DNA of 22,573 bases from a virus. This document shows positions 1,713 through 17,714 of the stretch, piece by piece. Position 1 is the first letter of the stretch; every line of letters begins with the position of its first letter. The notes under the pieces are model-generated. The model saw only the letters and a program-made list of their open reading frames with translations, made no database searches and was not told where the DNA came from. The position numbers and the translations under genes are program-made. The stretch covers positions 1-22,573 of the IMG/VR virus record IMGVR_UViG_3300029448_000479. One strand, given 5' to 3'.

Positions 1713-2012
1713 ATGCAAAAGCACACCAGAAGTTTATTAGAAGAATTAAGTTCAATGCCCCTTAAAAGGGACAAGGAGGAAGTTGTGGAGAGCCGTGCCT
1801 CACACATTCTTGAGTCAGCAATCAGACTAATGACATATATTAGAGAGAACTTTGATCAAGATACAGCATTCAAACTAGAGAAAAAATTCAACTCTGCAAT
1901 CAAAAACATGGACGCATCTAAGTTTAGCAAAGGTGTCGCACGTATTAAAGAGAATCGAGACGTAAAAGAAAACGTGCTTAAAATCAAAGACGGTGAATAC
2001 AAAGAGGATTAA
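1713..2012 (+). CDS. Small conserved phage-type protein, function unknown
   Basis: This soluble, highly charged protein of 99 residues is predicted to be mostly helical. It opens with QKHTRSLLEELSSM and has a central helix around residues 28-48 (SRASHILESAIRLMTYIREN). No catalytic motif or membrane segment is visible. It has the look of small proteins carried among structural genes in T4-like marine phages, but no function can be named. Its stop overlaps the ATG of the amidinotransferase by one base (TAATG), which indicates translational coupling. The sequence AAAGAGG just before that junction probably serves as ribosome binding site for the next gene. Confidence 0.75.
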   Translation: MQKHTRSLLEELSSMPLKRDKEEVVESRASHILESAIRLMTYIRENFDQDTAFKLEKKFNSAIKNMDASKFSKGVARIKENRDVKENVLKIKDGEYKED

Positions 2013-3040
2013 TGTCTGACAAGATCAGAATATCCACGCACACACCCTTTCAACCATTAGAAGCAGTCTTAGTAGGACAAGGAGTAAGTGCTAACTTCTT
2101 TGACTGGGTGAAAGACGACAAGATCCGTACACCACTCAACAGGATAGTGCAAGAAACACACGAGGATCTCGAATTTATAAAAAAAACAATAGAAGATTTT
2201 GGAGCCGAGGTGTATCAAGATAAGCCATTAGAATTCGAGCATCAATTGTTCGAAAACAAGATGGCTATTCCTGTTCCACCAATACAACCTAGAGATGTGC
2301 ATTTGACTTTAGGAGACAAGGTATATTGCACTAGCACACAAAAAGTATGGAGATACATCTACGACATCGTAGAACAGGACTCAATAGTTGACTTGTTCAC
2401 CCTGTCGTACGATTCAGGCAAAACTTACGAAGGTGGAGATATGATAAGTGGTGCCAATTGCCTAAAAGTTGGTGATAGGATTATCATACCATCGGTCGTT
2501 GGTGCAAATATGAAAAAGTTCTGTACAGATTTTTTTACGGAAAAAGGTTATGAAATAGTAGCAACCAAAGATTATGCACACACAGATGGAATGATGAGTG
2601 TGCTGAAACCGGGAGTGATAATCTCGTTACAAGATGTTATCAACTACAAAGAAACTTTCCCAGGCTGGGAGGTATTGCACTGTAAAAATCAAAGTTGGAA
2701 CAAAGTAGCGGGTTGGATGCAGTTCAAAAATAAAAGCAAAGGCAGATGGTGGGTGCCTGGTGAGGAATCCAATGAACATTTACAGCAATTCGTTGATACA
2801 TGGTTAGGAAAATGGGTAGGATTTGTAGAAGAAACGGTGTTCGATGTCAATATGTTTAGCCTGTCAGAAGAATGTGTGCTGGTTAACAACTATAATAAAG
2901 ATGTGTTTGAATTTCTAAAGAAACATAAAATAGAGCCAATCATTTGTCCAATGAGGCACAGATATTTTTGGGACGGTGGATTACACTGCTTCACAGTAGA
3001 TTTAAAAAGAAAAGGAAACAGAGAAAATTACTTCAAATGA
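2012..3040 (+). CDS. Amidinotransferase (glycine amidinotransferase-like)
   Basis: A 342-residue member of the guanidino-modifying pentein superfamily, closest in motif pattern to L-arginine:glycine amidinotransferase (AGAT) and related bacterial enzymes. Visible motifs are PRDVH at 93-97, EGGD with D143, HTDG with H190, and the C-terminal GGLHCFTVD with C326. These correspond to the family's Asp-His-Cys catalytic arrangement, where the cysteine forms the amidino-enzyme intermediate. Known family members move the amidino group of arginine to an amine acceptor; the acceptor here is unknown. It is cytosolic and somewhat shorter than vertebrate AGAT. It is translationally coupled at both ends: TAATG with the gene before and ATGA with the gene after. 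A dihydrolase relative is possible but the HC-x-T-x-D ending favours amidinotransferase. Confidence 0.85.
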   Translation: MSDKIRISTHTPFQPLEAVLVGQGVSANFFDWVKDDKIRTPLNRIVQETHEDLEFIKKTIEDFGAEVYQDKPLEFEHQLFENKMAIPVPPIQPRDVHLTLGDKVYCTSTQKVWRYIYDIVEQDSIVDLFTLSYDSGKTYEGGDMISGANCLKVGDRIIIPSVVGANMKKFCTDFFTEKGYEIVATKDYAHTDGMMSVLKPGVIISLQDVINYKETFPGWEVLHCKNQSWNKVAGWMQFKNKSKGRWWVPGEESNEHLQQFVDTWLGKWVGFVEETVFDVNMFSLSEECVLVNNYNKDVFEFLKKHKIEPIICPMRHRYFWDGGLHCFTVDLKRKGNRENYFK

Positions 3041-5981: not shown

Positions 5982-6542
5982 ATGTTAACACCTTTTTTAA
6001 AGTATGTATCAGAAGGCAAAGTGATAAGGAAATTTAGTGACCTGCAAAGGTTTACTTTCCCTGAGGTCTCAGAGAGAATATATCTTAGTTTTTTAGCATT
6101 AGCACTCATGAGCCAAAGTAAAGATACTTTACCATTCGTGAAGTCCTACGCTGATCAAACCATGGCTAAAGGCACCTTTGATCAAGTAAGGATGATAAAC
6201 AATGATCTTGCAAACATGTTGGCCATCGTGTCCGGCGATCCTGAGATAACAAAAAAATTAAAAAACAAAAATCAAGCACAGGCAATGAGGCAAAGACAAC
6301 CAGTGCCTGTAATGGCATTGAGAAGATATCTGAGAAGTTGGGAGGATCACTACAAAAATCTTACACAATTGGAAAGAGCATTGAATATAACTGATGCCAA
6401 CTATAAAAATGTAAGAAGAGCGGTGGCTGATTACAGCCGATTGAATTCAAGTACGCAAACACAAACGGTTAACAAACTTAAACAGATGTTGCAGTCGAAA
6501 CTACCTAACACTGACATTCATAAAAAATTCAAGGACTTTTAA
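5982..6542 (+). CDS. Conserved phage-type protein, function unknown
   Basis: The ATG at 5982 (186 residues) is preferred over an in-frame ATG at 5940. The longer version would overlap the divergent gene's start and begin upstream of the perfect late promoter at 5969-5976. The protein is basic and helical with no membrane segment. It has a hydrophobic helix around SERIYLSFLALALM and a Gln/Arg stretch (QAMRQRQPVPVM). I do not recognise a domain. Its stop overlaps the ATG of the FkbM methyltransferase by one base (TAATG), so the two are translationally coupled. It may be a structural or assembly protein, by analogy with similar genes in T4-like phages. Confidence 0.75.
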   Translation: MLTPFLKYVSEGKVIRKFSDLQRFTFPEVSERIYLSFLALALMSQSKDTLPFVKSYADQTMAKGTFDQVRMINNDLANMLAIVSGDPEITKKLKNKNQAQAMRQRQPVPVMALRRYLRSWEDHYKNLTQLERALNITDANYKNVRRAVADYSRLNSSTQTQTVNKLKQMLQSKLPNTDIHKKFKDF

Positions 6543-7156
6543 TGGACAACAATTATTGGGTGCTGTACGCCTCACATGATGAGCCAAAGTATTTGAAGGA
6601 CGCAGGGGGTGGACAAAGGGCACAAAGAGAGGCCAGTCTAAGATTTGTAAGTTCACATAGGAATGCATTAGATATAGGAAGCAACATAGGACAATGGACC
6701 AGACCACTTGCTAAAATTTTCGACAACGTGATATGCTTTGAACCAAACCCTAACTTTCGAGAATGTTTTTCAAGAAACATCAATGAGCCTAATGTGATCC
6801 TACATCCTTATGCATTGAGTAGTCATGAACATACTGCCGAACAAGGCAAAACAGATACACACTTGAATCATAGAGTGGGTGACACAAATCCGCGTGATGG
6901 TGATATAGAATGTAAATCTTTGGATAGTTTCAATTTTGCAGAAATAGATTATGTAAAGATTGACGTGGACGGATTTGAAATACCTTTATTGGAAGGTGCC
7001 AAGGAAACATTAACTCGTAATTCTCCGGTGATCAATATTGAAATGAAAAGGGCGAAACGTCCTGTGATTACACGCAGGGCAACTGCTATTTTAAATGATC
7101 TTGGGTATCAGTACGTAAAGACCACTAAAAGTGATGAGATCTGGATCAAATCGTAA
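6542..7156 (+). CDS. FkbM-family SAM-dependent methyltransferase
   Basis: A 204-residue class I methyltransferase. The SAM-binding motif ALDIGSNIGQWT (42-53) is followed by the acidic end of strand 2 in VICFEPNP (E67). The FkbM signature IDYVKIDVDGFE lies at 135-146, and a closing strand VINIEM follows. FkbM proteins usually O-methylate sugars or polyketide hydroxyls, so a role in capping a glycan is plausible, perhaps the one made by the nearby glycosyltransferase-like protein; that link is inference. It is translationally coupled to the gene before it and is followed by a 99-nt gap with a late promoter for the structural block. Soluble and complete compared with the usual length of the family's core domain. 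Confidence 0.85.
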   Translation: MDNNYWVLYASHDEPKYLKDAGGGQRAQREASLRFVSSHRNALDIGSNIGQWTRPLAKIFDNVICFEPNPNFRECFSRNINEPNVILHPYALSSHEHTAEQGKTDTHLNHRVGDTNPRDGDIECKSLDSFNFAEIDYVKIDVDGFEIPLLEGAKETLTRNSPVINIEMKRAKRPVITRRATAILNDLGYQYVKTTKSDEIWIKS

Positions 7157-11705: not shown

Positions 11706-11713
11706 AATAAATA
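11706..11713 (+). promoter_or_regulatory. T4-late-like promoter AATAAATA
   Basis: Seven of eight bases match TATAAATA, ending 8 nt before the ATG at 11721. The predicted transcript start (about 11719) leaves essentially no leader, and there is no Shine-Dalgarno. Confidence 0.6.
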
Positions 11714-11720
11714 AACACAT

Positions 11721-12584
11721 ATGAAGAGTTTAGACCTTACAAAACCAGTTACTACAGAATCTTTGTTGGCAGAATTCGAATCAAGATTCAATCAAACCAT
11801 GGATCTTTCAAAATTCACTAAGGAAGAACTAGAAGACACAGCAAATCATGTGAGAACTAAGATCCACGAGATCACACAGAACACACATTTCGGACAAGAA
11901 TTAAAAGATGATTCATATCAAAAGAATCAAATGATGTTAGACATTATCAACCAAGCCATCACAGAAAGAAAACTTGCTGAATATGGAGGAAGCATGGCGA
12001 GTGACCCTCAAGTCAAAGCGGGTGCAACGGCCATTAGTGCAAAGTCTAAACTAGATAAAGGACAAAGTTTATCACCTGATGAGAAAAAACAAGTAAGCAA
12101 AATGCTACAGACAGAGGGTGTAGAAGAACAATCAGAATTAATATTAGCGGCCAAGGACATGATGGACAAAGTCACAGGTTACTTGGAAGATCTAGCATCA
12201 ATGAAAACAGAAGGCATGTTAGAACTAGCAGACAGAATCAGAGACGAGATGGGAGCAGACAAGGCAGATGCTTTCATGCAAAAAATCCAACCAGCGATTG
12301 AACAGGCGGAATCAACTTTAACGGCAACTAGACAAGAGCTAGACAACGGTGTAAGAATATTGACCGGAGAAGAAGTTGCTTCAGAACCCATGGGCGCCGA
12401 TGACACGATGGACATGGACACAGATCTAGACTCACTGGACCCAGACACAGATACGGAGACAGATGAGTTTGGAGCCTCTGACGCAGAAGCAGGTGGCACA
12501 GAACCAGAAGGCAGAGAGCAAAGAGAATCCAAAGAAGTGTTTGAAGCATCAAACAGAATGTTAAGCAAACTAGCAGGGAAGTAA
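11721..12584 (+). CDS. Probable virion structural protein with acidic C-terminal tract
   Basis: A 287-residue, strongly acidic, helical protein. Residues 1-95 are helical with a TKEELEDTANHVRTKIHEI segment. A second helical domain follows around 130-215, from EEQSELILAAKDMMDK to RQELDNGVRI. Then comes a low-complexity Asp/Thr/Glu tract (about 222-265, including DTMDMDTDLDSLDPDTD) and a short C-terminal helix (EVFEASNRMLSKLAGK). The pattern is familiar from virion proteins of cyanomyovirus-like phages, from memory, but the exact role is unknown. The acidic tract may be a flexible linker or DNA mimic. It has its own late promoter and is followed 5 nt later by the next gene. Confidence 0.7.
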   Translation: MKSLDLTKPVTTESLLAEFESRFNQTMDLSKFTKEELEDTANHVRTKIHEITQNTHFGQELKDDSYQKNQMMLDIINQAITERKLAEYGGSMASDPQVKAGATAISAKSKLDKGQSLSPDEKKQVSKMLQTEGVEEQSELILAAKDMMDKVTGYLEDLASMKTEGMLELADRIRDEMGADKADAFMQKIQPAIEQAESTLTATRQELDNGVRILTGEEVASEPMGADDTMDMDTDLDSLDPDTDTETDEFGASDAEAGGTEPEGREQRESKEVFEASNRMLSKLAGK

Positions 12585-12589
12585 TTCCT

Positions 12590-12946
12590 GTGAGATTTTC
12601 CGAATTCAACAAAAGCGATACAGACCTAGAGTCGGCATTGATCAATGTCCTACTCAATATGAAGGGCGATGCAGACGAACAGGACAAAGCCACAGACATA
12701 AGCATGGATGCAGTCAAACAGATAATGAGCAACACAGGTTATCCAGCATTCAATTATGATGTGTTCAAAAAAATATACGATCAAGACGGTGACCTTAAAA
12801 ATGTCGTTGCAGACTTTGACAACGAAAAAATAGTTGTAAAGACAAACCAAGAAGCAGAAAAAGAACCTGCAATGGATTACGACGATCAAGGTTCTACTGA
12901 CGTGGTTAAGAAGATGGCCAAGTCAGCAATGAAACGTAGACAGTAA
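12590..12946 (+). CDS. Small conserved protein, GTG start
   Basis: A 118-residue acidic protein that starts with GTG at 12590, five bases after the preceding stop, in frame with no earlier ATG. It begins RFSEFNKSDTDLESALINVL, contains an FNYDVFKKIYDQD helix, and ends with a basic tail (VVKKMAKSAMKRRQ). The charge split, acidic body then basic tail, suggests a binding partner such as nucleic acid or an acidic protein like its neighbour. Function is not recognised. It is probably co-transcribed with the acidic structural protein before it. Confidence 0.75.
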   Translation: MRFSEFNKSDTDLESALINVLLNMKGDADEQDKATDISMDAVKQIMSNTGYPAFNYDVFKKIYDQDGDLKNVVADFDNEKIVVKTNQEAEKEPAMDYDDQGSTDVVKKMAKSAMKRRQ

Positions 12947-12964
12947 TTTCAAATAATTAATAGT

Positions 12965-14255
12965 ATGTCTGACAGTAAGTCATATTGTGCATATCCTCCA
13001 ACATCAGTATGTTCACATGTCCGGATCAATAAGGTTGTGCTGTGCCACAATGGATAACGCCACAGACAAAAAAGGCAACAGGCTACACATAAACAACGAT
13101 TCTTTACAGAAAGCATGGAATAGCGATTACATGAAAGATGCCAGATTGAAGATGGCAAACGGCGAAGTCCTTAAGGCATGTAGCAAATGTGTACAGCAAG
13201 AGGCACGTGGGTACAAGTCAATGAGATTACACGAGAACAAAGACATCAATCTTGCAAATGTAAAGGCAGATGGCTCCATGGACTTCATGCCTTATTCAAT
13301 GGAGTTACACTTTGGAAATGTTTGTAATTTAAAGTGCAAGATGTGTGGACAGGACTACTCAAATCAAATCGGTAAAGAAATATTAGAAATAGGTGAGCAG
13401 GATAAAGATTTTCTCAGCTGGGTATACAATCAAAGTGGCAATGTAAACAATTGGACAAACAATCTTTCTGTTGAATACACATGGTTCCGCAACAAAAAAA
13501 CTAAACAGAGGCTGATGGATTACGTAAGCCGACATATAACTAGATTAACAATAATTGGTGGCGAGCCAACAATCATTCCCGAGTTTTATGAACTATTAGA
13601 CCATTGTAACAAAAACAATACCCTGCAAGAGAAAGACATAACAGTCGTAACAAATCTTACAAACACAAATCCAAAAATGACGCAATGGCTTCCTAAGATG
13701 AAATCGTGGACTGTTTGGGCTAGTCTTGATGGTATTGGAGAGGTTACTGAATATATTCGATACCCAAGCAACTTTAAAAAAATAACTGAAAATTTAAATT
13801 TCTACAAACAACTATTAGATAGGCATGGCAATGGAAAAATTACCTTCAGTCCTGCTATACAGTTATTGAATATACATCAACTTGACGACATGCTAAAATG
13901 GTTCATAAAATTTTCAGATGGCAACTGGGGTAACACAATTAACATCTCGTGGATGTCTCAAGTTTGGTATCCAAAAATTTGCAACTATGACACTGCTCCA
14001 AGGAGTTATAGATTATGGGTAGCAGACAAGTTAGAGAAGAGTGCAGATTACTTCACGCAATATGCCGGCATATCATACTTCTACGACAAGCAAATTGAAA
14101 ATTTAAGGACCGACACATTAGACAAAGAAACAGAACATCATCTACAAAATTCTTTTGTGAGGTACAATGACACACAAGACAGACACAGAAAACGTAATAC
14201 ATGGCGTGAACTTTTACCATTACTGGAACAGGCTTTGACAAATAACCTAAAGTAA
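12965..14255 (+). CDS. Twitch-type radical SAM protein 1, apparent +1 frameshift near 13019-13024
   Basis: A radical SAM enzyme of about 430 residues. The cluster motif FGNVCNLKCKMC (codons 13317-13346) is CxxxCxxC, and GGEPT follows near 13560. Upstream lie LCCAT and ACSKC, auxiliary cysteines resembling those of the second copy at 14987. The reading frame that encodes these has no ATG before 13017, only GTG at 12987. The conserved N-terminal start MSDSKSYCAYPPTSV is encoded from ATG 12965 in another frame, which stops at 13055. Skipping one base around 13019-13024 (GTC C GGA) joins it to GSIRLCC, giving the same layout as copy 2. A sequencing or assembly error, a decayed gene, or programmed +1 frameshifting could explain it. 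Substrate unknown; twitch proteins modify peptides or small molecules. Confidence 0.65.
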
Positions 14256-14263
14256 TATACAAT

Positions 14264-14977
14264 ATGTCTATGAAAATACCTGAAGATGTGATCCAAAGCA
14301 AAGGTATCACATACCTGCAAAAATATCCTTATGGCGAATTAGCAAGAGTAACAAAGGATAAGAAAAGGCATTATGAAACTCCAGACGGGAGACAGGTACC
14401 TAGCGTGACCACTGTGCTGTCTGCAACAAAAGATATGACACATCTACACGCATGGCGTAAGAGAGTGGGAGTGGAGAAGGCACAACAGATAACAACTGAG
14501 TCAGCAAACATCGGAACAGTGATGCACCGTAGCCTTGAGAAGCATGTCAAGGGCGAGGATCGTACACCAGGATCAAACCTTATACAACAGAAGGCACACG
14601 GCATGGCTAACGTAATTATTGACAACGGACTAAACGATGTTACCGAAGTGTGGGGCTCAGAGGTATCGCTTTATTATCCAGAACTATACGCAGGAACCAC
14701 AGACTTGGTCGGGGTATACAAAGGGCAACCTGCCATTATGGATTTCAAACAGGCAAGAAAATTAAAAAAGAAAGAATGGGTTGAAGATTATTATCTTCAA
14801 CTGGTGGCATATGCTGAAGCACACAACAAGCAGTATGATACACAAATTAAAAATGGACGTATCTTTATCTGCACACAGGCCAACGAATATCAAACGTTCG
14901 AAATTGACAACTACGATCACTGGGTTGGTAAATGGTATGGCAAACTAGAAGAATACTACAAAAAAATTCTCGATTAA
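14264..14977 (+). CDS. PD-(D/E)XK nuclease, RecB/Cas4-like
   Basis: A 237-residue nuclease of the RecB/Cas4-like exonuclease group. It shows GTVMH (H88), TTDLVG with D147, IMDFK with D160 and K162 (the D-x-K core of the PD-(D/E)XK site), and LQLVAYAEA with Q179 (motif QxxxY). An N-terminal segment VPSVTTVLSATKD is the substrate-side region common in phage members. It has no Fe-S cysteine set of the Cas4 kind, so a Cas4 role is unlikely. Expected to degrade or process DNA ends, perhaps recombination intermediates or host DNA. It lies 8 nt after the first radical SAM gene and 9 nt before the second, and no promoter box is close. Confidence 0.85.
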   Translation: MSMKIPEDVIQSKGITYLQKYPYGELARVTKDKKRHYETPDGRQVPSVTTVLSATKDMTHLHAWRKRVGVEKAQQITTESANIGTVMHRSLEKHVKGEDRTPGSNLIQQKAHGMANVIIDNGLNDVTEVWGSEVSLYYPELYAGTTDLVGVYKGQPAIMDFKQARKLKKKEWVEDYYLQLVAYAEAHNKQYDTQIKNGRIFICTQANEYQTFEIDNYDHWVGKWYGKLEEYYKKILD

Positions 14978-14980
14978 ATA
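14973..14980 (+). promoter_or_regulatory. T4-late-like promoter ATTAAATA
   Basis: Six of eight bases match TATAAATA. The octamer overlaps the nuclease's stop codon and ends 7 nt before the ATG at 14987, the same geometry as at 3740. Confidence 0.5.
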
Positions 14981-14986
14981 AGTTTA

Positions 14987-16111
14987 ATGAAAACAGAACC
15001 AGATAAGTTCTGTAAGGCTCCATTCAGAAGTCTTGCAGTCGACAATGATGGCACTTTGATGCCTTGTTGCGAATTCATCAGAGATGAATCTACACTACCA
15101 CAATATAAAATATGGGAGTTCGACAAATATAAAGCAGACACCACTTTAAGACAAAAAATGCTTAATGGTCAGATAGATGGTGGATGTGCCTACTGTGTGA
15201 AAAGGGAAAGTAATGGCGTGAACAGAAGAGAATGGCATAACAGTCTCTTCGAAGAAAATTATGAATCATTTAAAGCTGACAGTATTGATCTTGGATTACT
15301 TGAACTACGTCTTGGTAATTTTTGCAACCTAAAATGCACCATGTGTGGACCATATGCCAGTTCACAATGGAATACTGAGGCAAAGAAAAATAAAGAAAAG
15401 TTTTCGGAGTTTAATATTGGGACTCTAAAAACAGACCACGATTGGATACATAATGAAGATACAAAGACACTCATAAAAGATATTTTAAGAAATTGTTCAA
15501 AAGTAAACTTTGGTGGAGGAGAACCTTTTATTAATCCTTTTATAAATGACTTTCTTAAAGAAATTAAGTTAGAAACAGCACTCGCATTCAGCACCAATGG
15601 TACTAGAATTCACGACAGCACTTTGGAACTTTTAAAAGACAGGCCAAACGTAATGGTTAATATCAGTATTGACGGAGTAGGTGAACATAACAATTACATC
15701 AGAAGCGGAAGTTCGTGGAGTGACATTGAGCAAACGATGGACAAACTTAAAGAAAAAAATATAAAGTTTATTATATATTACATACTCCAACACACTTCCT
15801 TGTTTACTTTCAAACAAGTATATGAATATTGCATAGCCAATGATATTGAACTAGAAATAGGTGAAATATATAAAGGATCAGTTGATGGTTCTGGACATCT
15901 TACCTTGTGTAGTGCCAACAAACTAGACGTAGAAAAATTCAAAAGATGGTTATCAACAATCAACACGCCCAAGGTTAAAGTGGTACATAATTGGTTGAAA
16001 AACTATGAATTTGATAAAAATTTACACACAAGGTTCAAGCAATATTTCACAATGCTTGACGATGTAAGAGGCACAGATTTCGTTAAAACGTTCAATCCTT
16101 CCTGGACATAA
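14987..16111 (+). CDS. Twitch-type radical SAM protein 2
   Basis: A complete 374-residue radical SAM protein. The cluster motif is LGNFCNLKCTMC (C113, C117, C120), and NFGGGEPFINPF supplies the GGE turn that binds SAM. The N-terminus has C9 in KFCKAPF, the pair C27-C28 in LMPCCEF and C67/C70 in CAYC, consistent with an auxiliary twitch/SPASM-like iron-sulfur cluster region. NISIDGVGEHN and YYILQHTS lie in the barrel. It is the intact counterpart of the frameshifted copy at 12965. Family members often modify ribosomal or peptide substrates, but the target here is unknown. No precursor peptide gene was recognised nearby. The late-type octamer before it fits late expression with virion proteins. 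Confidence 0.85.
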   Translation: MKTEPDKFCKAPFRSLAVDNDGTLMPCCEFIRDESTLPQYKIWEFDKYKADTTLRQKMLNGQIDGGCAYCVKRESNGVNRREWHNSLFEENYESFKADSIDLGLLELRLGNFCNLKCTMCGPYASSQWNTEAKKNKEKFSEFNIGTLKTDHDWIHNEDTKTLIKDILRNCSKVNFGGGEPFINPFINDFLKEIKLETALAFSTNGTRIHDSTLELLKDRPNVMVNISIDGVGEHNNYIRSGSSWSDIEQTMDKLKEKNIKFIIYYILQHTSLFTFKQVYEYCIANDIELEIGEIYKGSVDGSGHLTLCSANKLDVEKFKRWLSTINTPKVKVVHNWLKNYEFDKNLHTRFKQYFTMLDDVRGTDFVKTFNPSWT

Positions 16112-16114
16112 ATA
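16107..16114 (+). promoter_or_regulatory. T4-late-like promoter CATAAATA
   Basis: Seven of eight bases match TATAAATA, ending 8 nt before the ATG at 16122. It overlaps the end of the radical SAM gene and drives the tail fibre. Confidence 0.6.
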
Positions 16115-16121
16115 ACAACAT

Positions 16122-17714
16122 ATGCCGATAGTACAGATATCAAGAATACAGCACAGACGTGGAAAACGTACGGATCTGCCACAATTAGCGGCGGGAGAAC
16201 TAGGTTGGGTAATCGATGAACAGAGATTGTTCATAGGTAATGGAACCGTGTCCGATGGTGCACCGGCTGTGGGAAACACTGAAATTGTAACTGAAGGAAG
16301 TTCAGCATTTACAACTGCTCTCAGTTACACCTACAAAGGCTACCTAGGTGATTCAACGCCCATCACAACATCTCAACAGAGGACCTTACAAAACAGATTA
16401 GACGAATATGTTTCTGTCAGAGATTTTGGTGCAAAGGGTGATGACTCTACATCAGACCTTACTGCGATACAAAATGCAATCGACGAGCTGTACATTGACA
16501 CGGACAAAGACGATACTAGGGCAAGGAGAGTATTATTTTTCCCAGCAGGCACATACAAAATTAGTTCGGCACTCAAAATTCCACCATTCGCTCACCTAGT
16601 GGGTGAAGGTCCAGACAAAACGATAATCAAGAATTCAGGAAACAATGCTGTAATTGTGATGCAAGATGACGAAGGCAACGTTGGATCAAACATAGGAAAC
16701 TCCAGTGCTACAACACCAACTCAGATACAGATAACAAACATGACTTTAAGACAATCTGTAGCCTACGGAGGTGTTTCATTAGACAGGGTTACTAACGCAT
16801 ATTTTAATAATGTCAAATTCCAAGGAACATTTGCTTCTGGAGGAACTGATGCCTCTACATCCAAAGGCGTGACTGTAACTAATTCAACAGCAACATTTTC
16901 GACATCCAACATTGTATTCAACCAATGCCAATTCACAAAATTTGCAAGGCTAGTTGATTTAAGTTTTAATTGCACTAACATCAAATTCCATGCCTGTGAT
17001 TTCAAAACAGCATTCTATGGAGCACTCATTGGTGCAGAGATGGACGGTAGTACAACAGGACTTGATGATGGACCACGAGATGTCCAATTTACCAGTTCAA
17101 GTTGGAGTGACATAGGACAGCAGGCAATTTTAGTAGCGCCGGCGACAGGTACAACAGATGATGCCGGACCAAGACATATAGTTTCACACGCCAACTTTTA
17201 CGCTAAGACTGTTGCTAACAACTTCGAAGGTGTTGGCTCGATCAGAGAAGTACCAATTATTCAATTCGACAATGATGAGTGTTCATCTGTCCAAGACTTT
17301 TTTGAGAGGACCGATGCGAGAAGATCGGATGGTAGTACAAACGCGGCACCGGAAGTACAAGGTATAGGTGTCACAACCAAATTAATTAAATCACAGACTT
17401 TACCTGACAACACATCGTCGGCCACTACGATAAACGAATTTCCAGCACTTGCAAGTAAAGGAATATCAATTAAGTATAAAATTACAAGAGGTACTCTTGA
17501 TAGAACAGGTGAATTCATAATAAGTGCATCAACGAATGGTATTAGTTTCGATGACACATTCACAGAAAGCGGTGCTACCGCTGGTGTCACATTGACAGCC
17601 ACACTGGACAATAAAGATTCAACTGCAGGCAGTGAAACAGTTTCATTTAGGTTTACAACTACCAGTACAGGTACGGCGGCAATAATAGATTACCAAACAA
17701 CCATCCTAGCATAA
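16122..17714 (+). CDS. Tail fibre or tailspike with pectate-lyase-type beta helix
   Basis: A 530-residue virion fibre protein. The N-terminal 45 residues carry ISRIQHRRGKRTDLPQ and AAGELGWVIDEQRLFIGNG, the small repeat found at the base of many phage fibres (major tropism determinant/hyaluronate-lyase-repeat type). From residue 96, YVSVRDFGAKGDDSTSDL followed by AIQNAID is the start of the pectate-lyase-3 beta-helix domain. Thr/Ser/Gly/Asn-rich repeats run to about 380, and a final beta-rich domain completes the protein. The fold suggests binding to, or cleavage of, a surface polysaccharide and so host recognition. Catalytic residues of the helix cannot be assigned. No chaperone gene follows; a 141-nt gap separates it from nrdA. 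Likely expressed late from the octamer at 16107. Confidence 0.85.
   Translation: MPIVQISRIQHRRGKRTDLPQLAAGELGWVIDEQRLFIGNGTVSDGAPAVGNTEIVTEGSSAFTTALSYTYKGYLGDSTPITTSQQRTLQNRLDEYVSVRDFGAKGDDSTSDLTAIQNAIDELYIDTDKDDTRARRVLFFPAGTYKISSALKIPPFAHLVGEGPDKTIIKNSGNNAVIVMQDDEGNVGSNIGNSSATTPTQIQITNMTLRQSVAYGGVSLDRVTNAYFNNVKFQGTFASGGTDASTSKGVTVTNSTATFSTSNIVFNQCQFTKFARLVDLSFNCTNIKFHACDFKTAFYGALIGAEMDGSTTGLDDGPRDVQFTSSSWSDIGQQAILVAPATGTTDDAGPRHIVSHANFYAKTVANNFEGVGSIREVPIIQFDNDECSSVQDFFERTDARRSDGSTNAAPEVQGIGVTTKLIKSQTLPDNTSSATTINEFPALASKGISIKYKITRGTLDRTGEFIISASTNGISFDDTFTESGATAGVTLTATLDNKDSTAGSETVSFRFTTTSTGTAAIIDYQTTILA

What the first reader, a model, noticed from the sequence alone, without database searches (positions are those of the whole stretch)
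12965..16111. Two twitch-type radical SAM proteins flank a RecB-like nuclease
Seen: CxxxCxxC and GGE motifs in both radical SAM genes plus auxiliary cysteines, with a PD-(D/E)XK nuclease between them, gaps of 8-9 nt, next to virion and fibre genes. Known: such proteins install post-translational or small-molecule modifications. Inference: a modification module whose target may be a virion protein, nucleic acid or host factor; the nuclease could be co-opted or just a neighbour. No precursor peptide was recognised.
Basis: partly seen in the sequence, partly recalled or inferred. Interest (0 to 1): 0.55.

Follow-up and report, generated by a model that had tools for sequence, protein, structure and literature searches.

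The report
Swappable radical-SAM genes in marine phage
Two radical-SAM enzyme genes sit on either side of an ordinary phage nuclease gene in an uncultured marine phage; relatives show that they are exchangeable cargo in two variable slots, probably for chemical decoration late in infection, rather than one three-gene machine.

Summary
The window encodes two N-terminal-auxiliary-cluster radical SAM proteins (NF033640, both over cut-off) around a RecB/MGME1-like exonuclease, with gaps of 8 and 9 nt. One correction: rSAM1 is frame-broken near 12998 in this record. Its ORF reads from GTG 12987; a near-identical sibling is intact from the ATG equivalent to 12965.

The trio is not an obligate unit. 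Among 59 non-redundant marine viral loci found by the nuclease, the order scaffold-like, g12590, [slot A], nuclease, [slot B], tailspike is kept. Slot A holds rSAM genes in 48, slot B in 5; 9 have both slots empty. Number, strand and type vary. Between the window and relative L009 the segment from about 12.9 to 16.05 kb is 68-85% identical while flanks are 91-99%: it was swapped as a block. Slot rSAMs lack the late-promoter motif that the tailspike and scaffold genes carry.

So: exchangeable cargo under purifying selection, probably expressed late, plausibly for surface modification; the substrate is unknown. rSAM cassettes in marine T4-like phages are already published. New here, in relatives: 18 of 18 other plus-strand rSAM1 relatives are paired with, or fused to, a glutathione-peroxidase-like protein that the window's own branch lacks.

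The parts
12965..14255 (+). rSAM1: N-terminal auxiliary-cluster (twitch) radical SAM gene; readable ORF 12987-14255 (422 aa), start by homology ATG 12965, frame broken near 12998 in this record
14264..14977 (+). RecB/MGME1-like PD-(D/E)XK exonuclease, conserved core gene and not part of the cargo
14987..16111 (+). rSAM2: second N-terminal auxiliary-cluster radical SAM gene (374 aa)
12947..14263 (.). Slot A: variable cargo slot between g12590 and the exonuclease, 1317 bp here (about 30-57 bp in eight of nine relatives with both slots empty, 182 bp in the ninth)
14978..16121 (.). Slot B: variable cargo slot between the exonuclease and the tailspike, 1144 bp here (about 13-34 bp in the nine relatives with both slots empty)
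11707..11713 (+). Late-promoter-like motif ATAAATA before the scaffold-like gene; proposed source of the transcript that covers slots A and B
   Evidence: found at this gene in 46 of 65 relatives
11721..12584 (+). Virion/scaffold-like protein (PHROG 14154, virion structural; 'scaffold' is my reading), upstream core gene
12590..12946 (+). g12590, small conserved core gene that forms the left border of slot A
16108..16114 (+). Late-promoter-like motif ATAAATA before the tailspike, overlapping the end of rSAM2
   Evidence: 60 of 64 relatives
16122..17714 (+). Tailspike (Mtd_N plus pectate-lyase-like), right border of slot B

Best explanation
The two radical SAM genes are exchangeable cargo in two adjacent variable slots of an uncultured marine T4-like phage lineage whose nearest phage records are Pelagibacter phage HTVC008M and cyanomyophages. 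The slots flank a conserved core exonuclease that is not part of the cargo (shown). The cargo turns over by exchange between relatives, in one case carrying the exonuclease along (shown for window versus L009; that it happens by homologous recombination through the conserved neighbours is inferred). Slot rSAMs carry no late-promoter motif and the plus-strand ones are most likely read through from the late promoter of the scaffold-like gene (inferred from motif positions). The products most likely bind the SAM [4Fe-4S] cluster plus an N-terminal auxiliary Fe-S cluster (inferred from invariant cysteines and family). Most likely (inferred) they make a radical-based change late in infection to a surface component, either a sugar that decorates the virion or host envelope or the tail-fibre protein itself, and are swapped for the reason that tailspikes are: host range, phage competition or receptor change.
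For: Conserved order with variable slots in 59 full non-redundant loci: A rSAM 48, B rSAM 5, no rSAM 11, both empty 9. Block exchange: window versus L009 68-85% over about 12.9-16.05 kb, against 91-96% just upstream and 92-99% in the tailspike. rSAM1 distances do not follow nrdA (rho 0.09, p 0.25) while NUC-nrdA (0.52) and g12590-TSP (0.70) do (22 loci). Near relatives with different content, e.g. L072 versus empty L076, flanks 90.5% and 92.0%; a decayed rSAM1 remnant in L096. Late motif at tailspike 60/64, scaffold 46/65, nrdA 48/57, but 0/57 plus-strand and 0/36 minus-strand slot rSAMs and 0/69 nucleases; random 145/3450. Low dN/dS. In print: radical SAM cassettes that differ between close pelagimyophages in the island named host-recognition cluster (PMC7029224, passages).
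Against: No substrate is shown. Sugar enzymes in the slots are few: of nine non-rSAM slot proteins scanned with Pfam only one, an NDP-sugar epimerase in L069, is a clear one, and g4925-type genes have no Pfam hit. Amidinotransferase relatives occur in 13 of 50 records, two of which have no N_Twi match, so that gene is not tied to the rSAMs. Of 150 association tests no other gene family survives correction. Read-through rests on a 7-base motif whose count in the window is at chance (6 seen, 6.9 expected), and 28 sigma-70-like matches were found against 17.5 (sd 4.4) in shuffles, one of 11/12 ending at 14263 just before the nuclease, so promoters inside the block are possible. Fold matches include both peptide and sugar/nucleoside enzymes. 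The survey covers the 80 nuclease matches closest to the window of 223.
Confidence: 0.45

Rival explanations
1. Protein or peptide maturation: the rSAMs install thioether, cyclophane or epimer changes in a virion protein (fibre, scaffold) or in a peptide encoded elsewhere in the phage.
For: Closest folds include the RiPP maturases SkfB (Z 13.6 for rSAM2, 11.0 for rSAM1), SuiB (12.6 for rSAM2) and the sulfatase maturase anSMEcpe (11.1 for rSAM1); SkfB is also the best PDB match by sequence profile for both; cargo lies between the scaffold-like gene and the tailspike.
Against: No precursor gene fits in the block (gaps 40, 8, 9, 10 nt); no gene family tracks the rSAM types after correction; loci with both slots empty keep the border virion genes; the fold matches are not specific.
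Confidence: 0.25
2. Small-molecule or nucleoside chemistry, for example an aminocyclitol, guanidino sugar or modified nucleotide that helps in host competition.
For: The rSAM2 family's N-terminal domain matches the C-terminal part of BtrN (6e-8), which I recall as an aminocyclitol dehydrogenase with a twitch domain; BlsE and DesII are among the fold matches; the window and slot A of L016 and L079 carry an amidinotransferase-like gene; long rSAM arrays in other viruses sit near NDP-sugar dehydrogenases and epimerases and a carbamoyltransferase.
Against: Only the auxiliary domain is shared with BtrN; the amidinotransferase also occurs in records without N_Twi rSAM.
Confidence: 0.2
3. A three-gene nucleic-acid system in which the rSAMs modify DNA or RNA and the nuclease cuts the unmodified form.
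For: The three genes are adjacent with tiny gaps and the block moved as one between the window and L009.
Against: The nuclease is present without any slot rSAM in 11 of 59 loci. It has relatives in 948 of 50,697 phage records, rSAM1 and rSAM2 in only 2 and 33.
Confidence: 0.04
4. Viperin-like or Cas4-like defence or counter-defence genes.
For: Weak hits to pVip and Cas4 models.
Against: Viperin model scores 30.8 and 37.6 against a cut-off of 180; Cas4 24.6 against 65, and the nuclease has one cysteine, where Cas4, as I recall, needs four.
Confidence: 0.03

Closest known systems
NCBIfam NF033640 twitch domain-containing radical SAM protein (N_Twi_rSAM)
   Same: Both genes exceed its cut-off over nearly full length; N-terminal cysteines and CxxxCxxC conserved in relatives.
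   Different: It is a subfamily model whose name gives no reaction.
Radical SAM cassettes in the pelagimyophage host-recognition cluster (PMC7029224; passages read)
   Same: Marine T4-like phages related to HTVC008M; rSAM cassettes differ between two close genomes, in an island with fibre genes and glycosyltransferases.
   Different: That island lies between VrlC and gp14; here the slots lie between a scaffold-like gene and the tailspike, around an exonuclease. The passages read do not describe these slots ('exonuclease' does not occur in the text).
Interchangeable module of five radical SAM genes plus a putative glycine amidinotransferase in Campylobacter phages CP220 and CPt10 (PMC2853527; passages read)
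   Same: Swappable rSAM block in virulent phages, with an amidinotransferase in the same genome neighbourhood here (window 2012-3040).
   Different: Five rSAM genes per block there, two here; the amidinotransferase here is about 10 kb away and not tied to the rSAMs.
T4-like marine genome TARA_ERS488813_N000010 with 12 radical SAM genes and a cas4 (PMC5332604; passages read)
   Same: T4-like ocean virus rich in rSAM genes and with a Cas4-annotated gene.
   Different: Gene order and domain class were not compared here.
BtrN, SkfB, SuiB, anSMEcpe
   Same: Radical SAM core and an auxiliary-cluster domain (the domain names are recalled).
   Different: The match to BtrN is to its C-terminal part (residues 166-258); here that domain is N-terminal.
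MGME1 and PHROG 298 exonucleases
   Same: The nuclease matches both.
   Different: No nuclease activity was tested.

Membership tests
NF033640 N_Twi_rSAM | Full-protein score at or above the curated cut-off of 170 bits | tested here: met
   280.3 (rSAM1 ORF) and 218 (rSAM2)
NF033640 N_Twi_rSAM | N-terminal auxiliary cysteines before the SAM-cluster motif | tested here: met
   Five invariant N-terminal cysteines in each family alignment; in the window's own rSAM1 the first one lies before the frame break
Radical SAM superfamily (PF04055) | CxxxCxxC cluster motif and PF04055 above gathering score | tested here: met
RiPP maturase system | Precursor peptide gene adjacent to the maturase | tested here: not met
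   No gap over 40 nt between 12946 and 16122; a precursor elsewhere is not excluded
Viperin (NF038283) | Score at or above cut-off 180 | tested here: not met
   30.8 and 37.6 bits
Cas4 | TIGR00372 cut-off 65 and four Fe-S cysteines (the latter recalled) | tested here: not met
   24.6 bits; one cysteine in the translated ORF
PHROG 298 phage exonuclease | Profile match over most of the protein | tested here: met
   6e-54 over residues 22-234
MGME1-type nuclease | Exonuclease activity and catalytic residues | not testable with these tools
   Sequence match only, 1.8e-7
Pelagimyophage host-recognition cluster (PMC7029224) | Location between VrlC and gp14 | not tested
   Neither gene was looked for; the window is a 22.6-kb fragment
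Exchangeable phage radical SAM cassette | Presence/absence and replacement between relatives with conserved flanks | tested here: met

The most novel reading that the evidence does not exclude
The slots hold a rapidly exchanged repertoire of radical SAM 'decorators' that act as a variable surface-chemistry system for the phage, analogous to swapping a fibre but at the level of chemical modification. The plus-strand family to which rSAM1 belongs originally worked through a dedicated partner: a glutathione-peroxidase-like protein encoded immediately upstream or fused, often without the cysteine of the peroxidase motif, and so probably presenting the substrate rather than acting as a peroxidase. 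The window's own branch has lost that partner, in many members in favour of a second, C-terminal-SPASM radical SAM protein.
Probability: 0.25. Interest if true: 0.65.

Novelty: new member of a known kind. Interest (0 to 1): 0.4.

Why it matters
Radical SAM genes are frequent unexplained cargo of marine viruses: up to 10 in tandem in one fetched locus, 16 matches in one 352-kb record, and no substrate is given in the passages read. The empty, single and double versions of the same two slots in related phages are a natural knock-out series that makes the substrate question testable. The peroxidase-like partner gives a concrete handle for one part of the family.

Tried and rejected
Trio as an obligate unit: rejected; nuclease-only and rSAM1-only loci are common. 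Amidinotransferase as partner: suggested by the Campylobacter phages and the SxtG match, not supported by distribution. Search for any partner gene across 68 loci, 150 tests: nothing survives correction; clusters labelled rSAM were skipped, and these include the peroxidase-like gene because the fusions join it to them. Defence reading (viperin, Cas4): scores far below cut-offs. Function from fold: models are good (pLDDT 89.4 and 87.5), but the matches are generic; no enzyme family is excluded by absence from those lists. Cellular neighbours: 65 genome loci, 47 with titles of Bdellovibrionota-type bacteria by my count (several loci come from one genome); 13 loci were skipped, 176 neighbours were listed and 95 of them scanned; the commonest family is in 4 of 95. 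Array neighbours: 39 of 93 cluster representatives were scanned. Rfam and tRNA scans of the window found nothing. HTVC008M shares DUF6267, nrdA and nrdB with the window; the slot genes, g12590, nuclease and tailspike were not found in the 22-kb stretch examined. The S-CAM9 stretch was fetched but not compared gene by gene. Literature: searches; no listed title or passage describes the peroxidase-like/rSAM pairing, and search 79 for four terms together gave zero papers; that is the only basis for calling it unreported. Papers: only find-passages of PMC7029224, PMC5332604, PMC7150976, PMC9301287 and PMC2853527 were read; all others were seen as listings. Odds: the best explanation was lowered from 0.50 to 0.45 in checking, because sugar enzymes among the slot cargo are fewer than first written and promoter-like matches exceed chance.
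Full report
What is there. The window is a 22.6-kb linear viral record. In the region named, three plus-strand ORFs lie head to tail: rSAM1 12987-14255, a PD-(D/E)XK nuclease 14264-14977, and rSAM2 14987-16111, with gaps of 8 and 9 nt, then 10 nt to a tailspike at 16122. Both rSAM proteins exceed the cut-off of NF033640, the twitch-domain radical SAM subfamily (280.3 and 218 bits; cut-off 170) and of PF04055. In the tool's 14 control genomes matches exist but none passes the NF033640 cut-off. Alignments of relatives keep the SAM-cluster CxxxCxxC, the GGEP motif and five N-terminal cysteines invariant (36 sequences; 24 sequences). The nuclease matches PHROG 298 and MGME1; it has a single cysteine in the translated ORF, so it does not look like a Cas4.

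A correction to rSAM1. Homologues start with a stretch that contains the first auxiliary cysteine. In the window that stretch is in the frame of ATG 12965, which stops at 13055-13057, while the rest of the protein is in another frame and reads from GTG 12987. The break lies near 12998. A sibling contig, L025, is 99.98% identical over 8201 nt and is intact at this point. Whether this is an assembly error or a real mutation cannot be told; L025 ends inside rSAM1. I used the intact relative L006 for the model.

Related loci. Searches of IMG/VR gave 1 locus with rSAM2, 55 with rSAM1 and the best 80 of 223 with the nuclease. At E <= 1e-5 rSAM1 and rSAM2 have only distant relatives in 2 and 33 of 50,697 phage records, all Vibrio phages, at 21-25% identity; the nuclease has relatives in 948. 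The top-ranked phage record for NrdB and DUF6267 is Pelagibacter phage HTVC008M (65.7% and 43.1%), with cyanomyophages close behind (64.5-64.8% and 40.8-41.8% among the ten rows shown). HTVC008M is classed in Kyanoviridae.

The slots. 102 loci with the nuclease collapse to 69 non-redundant ones, 64 with both borders present. To avoid the bias of loci found through rSAM1, I counted those that the nuclease search returned: 63 non-redundant, 59 with both borders. The order scaffold-like, g12590, [A], nuclease, [B], tailspike is kept. rSAM genes are in slot A in 48 of 59, in slot B in 5 (all of which also have one in A), in neither in 11; both slots are fully empty in 9. Loci carry 0, 1, 2 or 3 rSAM genes (11, 28, 12, 8 loci), 45 genes on the plus and 31 on the minus strand. 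In the nine empty loci slot A is 30-57 bp in eight and 182 bp in L118, and slot B is 13-34 bp. Two loci without rSAM hold other cargo (L084, L135). Other cargo includes g4925-type genes of unknown family, an amidinotransferase, one NDP-sugar epimerase, a GIY-YIG nuclease (slot B of L011; lookalikes in L016 and L130 recognised by eye) and an HtrA-like protease. These 80 loci are the closest of 223, so frequencies apply to near relatives only. L096 keeps only a remnant of about 64 residues of rSAM1.

How the cargo moves. Between the window and L009, nrdA and the tailspike differ little (dS 0.065 and 0.117) while synonymous sites of rSAM1, nuclease and rSAM2 are near saturation (pS 0.83, 0.74, 0.68). 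In 250-nt steps identity is 96.4 and 91.2% up to 12.8 kb, 82.0% in the step 12.8-13.05 kb, 68-85% to about 16.05 kb, and 91.6-99.2% beyond. The whole segment, nuclease included, was exchanged. L009 also has an extra rSAM gene of about 334 residues in slot A that the window lacks. The two slots also move apart: L004 and L088 share rSAM2 in slot B but differ in slot A, with flanks 92.6 and 95.9% alike. In 22 loci, protein distances of rSAM1 relatives do not track nrdA (rho 0.09, p 0.25) or g12590 (0.13, p 0.15) and track the nuclease and tailspike weakly (0.27 and 0.24, p 0.04 each), against 0.70 for g12590-tailspike and 0.52 for nuclease-nrdA. A GIY-YIG gene in slot B is one possible driver; this was not tested.

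Expression. The T4-type late motif ATAAATA (its role is recalled knowledge, not from a call) lies within -80 to +30 of the ORF start for the tailspike in 60 of 64 loci, the scaffold-like gene in 46 of 65 and nrdA in 48 of 57, but for g12590 in 0 of 67, the nuclease in 0 of 69, and for slot rSAMs (-80 to +60) in 0 of 57 plus-strand and 0 of 36 minus-strand genes; random windows 145 of 3450. In the window the motif is at 11707, 16108 and 17850 among six places, and its total there is at chance. No plus-strand terminator-like site was found between 11600 and 18000. Against pure read-through: 28 sigma-70-like matches were found in that stretch, against 17.5 (sd 4.4) in shuffles, and one of 11 in 12 ends at 14263 just before the nuclease. 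I infer read-through of plus-strand cargo from the scaffold-like gene's late promoter; minus-strand cargo needs another promoter and is unexplained.

Types of cargo rSAM. Among 68 loci (all but L043 of the 69): rSAM1-type at 55% identity or more in 22, one of them the L096 remnant; other plus-strand rSAM1 relatives at 37-48% in 18; minus-strand types of about 390-450 residues; a type of about 330-360 residues with C-terminal SPASM domain in the one member tested, L063; and rSAM2 in 7, partial loci counted. The plus-strand short type occurs in 12 loci and always directly before an rSAM1-type gene. The 18 other rSAM1 relatives are all coupled to a glutathione-peroxidase-like protein of 125-139 residues (PF00255, 3e-17 for L066): 16 encoded directly upstream with overlapping ORFs and 2 fused (L075, L136); a profile of the 16 finds these 18 among all slot proteins and no others. 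In a FastTree tree rooted on 8 minus-strand slot rSAMs the 21 rSAM1-type proteins (remnant left out) form one clade (support 0.98) nested among three peroxidase-coupled lineages, which do not form a clade of their own. So the partner is probably ancestral and was lost in the window's branch; the rooting support is moderate (0.77). Seven of the 16 free proteins keep the cysteine in the SASxCG motif; nine and the two fusions lack it. L109, one that lacks it, has no Pfam hit, so its membership rests on the profile. This suggests a binding or presenting role. It is not a feature of the window.

Wider family. Contigs L026-L058 carry 3 to 10 of these rSAM genes in the fetched stretch, mostly in tandem, and one 352-kb record has 16 matches. 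Of 39 array-neighbour representatives scanned (of 93), two match UDP-glucose/GDP-mannose dehydrogenase; other families, such as carbamoyltransferase, NDP-sugar epimerase, redoxin and methyltransferases, match one each. Among one genome for each of 84,980 cellular species the profile search finds 65 loci, 47 of them by title from Bdellovibrionota-type bacteria.

Mechanism. The models are confident (rSAM1 relative L006 pLDDT 89.4, pTM 0.88; rSAM2 87.5, 0.87). Best fold matches are radical SAM enzymes of several chemistries: for rSAM1 anSMEcpe 11.1, SkfB 11.0, DesII 10.7, BlsE 10.4, which are tied; for rSAM2 SkfB 13.6, SuiB 12.6, BlsE 12.3, MoaA 12.1. The rSAM2 family's N-terminal part matches the C-terminal part of BtrN (6e-8), so the auxiliary domain has changed ends. 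These results fit a radical reaction on a peptide or a sugar but do not choose between them. I give late surface modification the largest share because of the tailspike neighbour, the inferred late expression, the rapid exchange and the published view of a comparable island in pelagimyophages as host recognition (PMC7029224, passages). The target step is inference.

What is known. rSAM cassettes that differ between close pelagimyophages (PMC7029224), an interchangeable five-rSAM plus amidinotransferase module in Campylobacter phages (PMC2853527) and a T4-like ocean genome with 12 rSAM genes (PMC5332604) are in print. The window is therefore a new member of a known kind. The slot anatomy around the exonuclease, the block exchange and the peroxidase-like partner were not described in the passages read or visible in the listings of my searches.

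Noticed in passing
L066:6306-6722, L109:4401-4781, fused in L075:6334-7992 and L136:6331-7989: Glutathione-peroxidase-like protein encoded directly upstream of, or fused to, all 18 plus-strand slot rSAM1 relatives outside the window's own branch; the motif cysteine is lost in 11 of the 18.
   Followed up: partly
L026-L058, e.g. L048:2782-16672: Runs of up to 10 different radical SAM genes in other viral contigs, a few with sugar-nucleotide enzymes or a carbamoyltransferase nearby.
   Followed up: partly
window 2012-3040: Amidinotransferase-like gene (SxtG, HsvA and inosamine-phosphate amidinotransferase matches in its C-terminal part); relatives sit inside slot A of L016 and L079.
   Followed up: partly
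L139-L203: Cellular homologues of these rSAM proteins are concentrated in Bdellovibrionota-type bacteria (47 of 65 loci by title), often two or more rSAM genes per locus.
   Followed up: partly
L011:6297-6974 (also lookalikes in L016:10018-10695 and L130:4310-4990): GIY-YIG nuclease gene in slot B beside the exonuclease, a possible driver of cargo exchange; only L011 was checked against Pfam.
   Followed up: no
L135:6861-7961: HtrA-like protease (trypsin plus PDZ) as the only occupant of slot A.
   Followed up: no
slot A minus-strand rSAM genes, e.g. L078, L097, L067: Sets of three minus-strand rSAM genes between plus-strand late genes, with no late motif; their promoter is unexplained.
   Followed up: no
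window 6542-7156: FkbM-type methyltransferase (PF05050, 4e-14).
   Followed up: no
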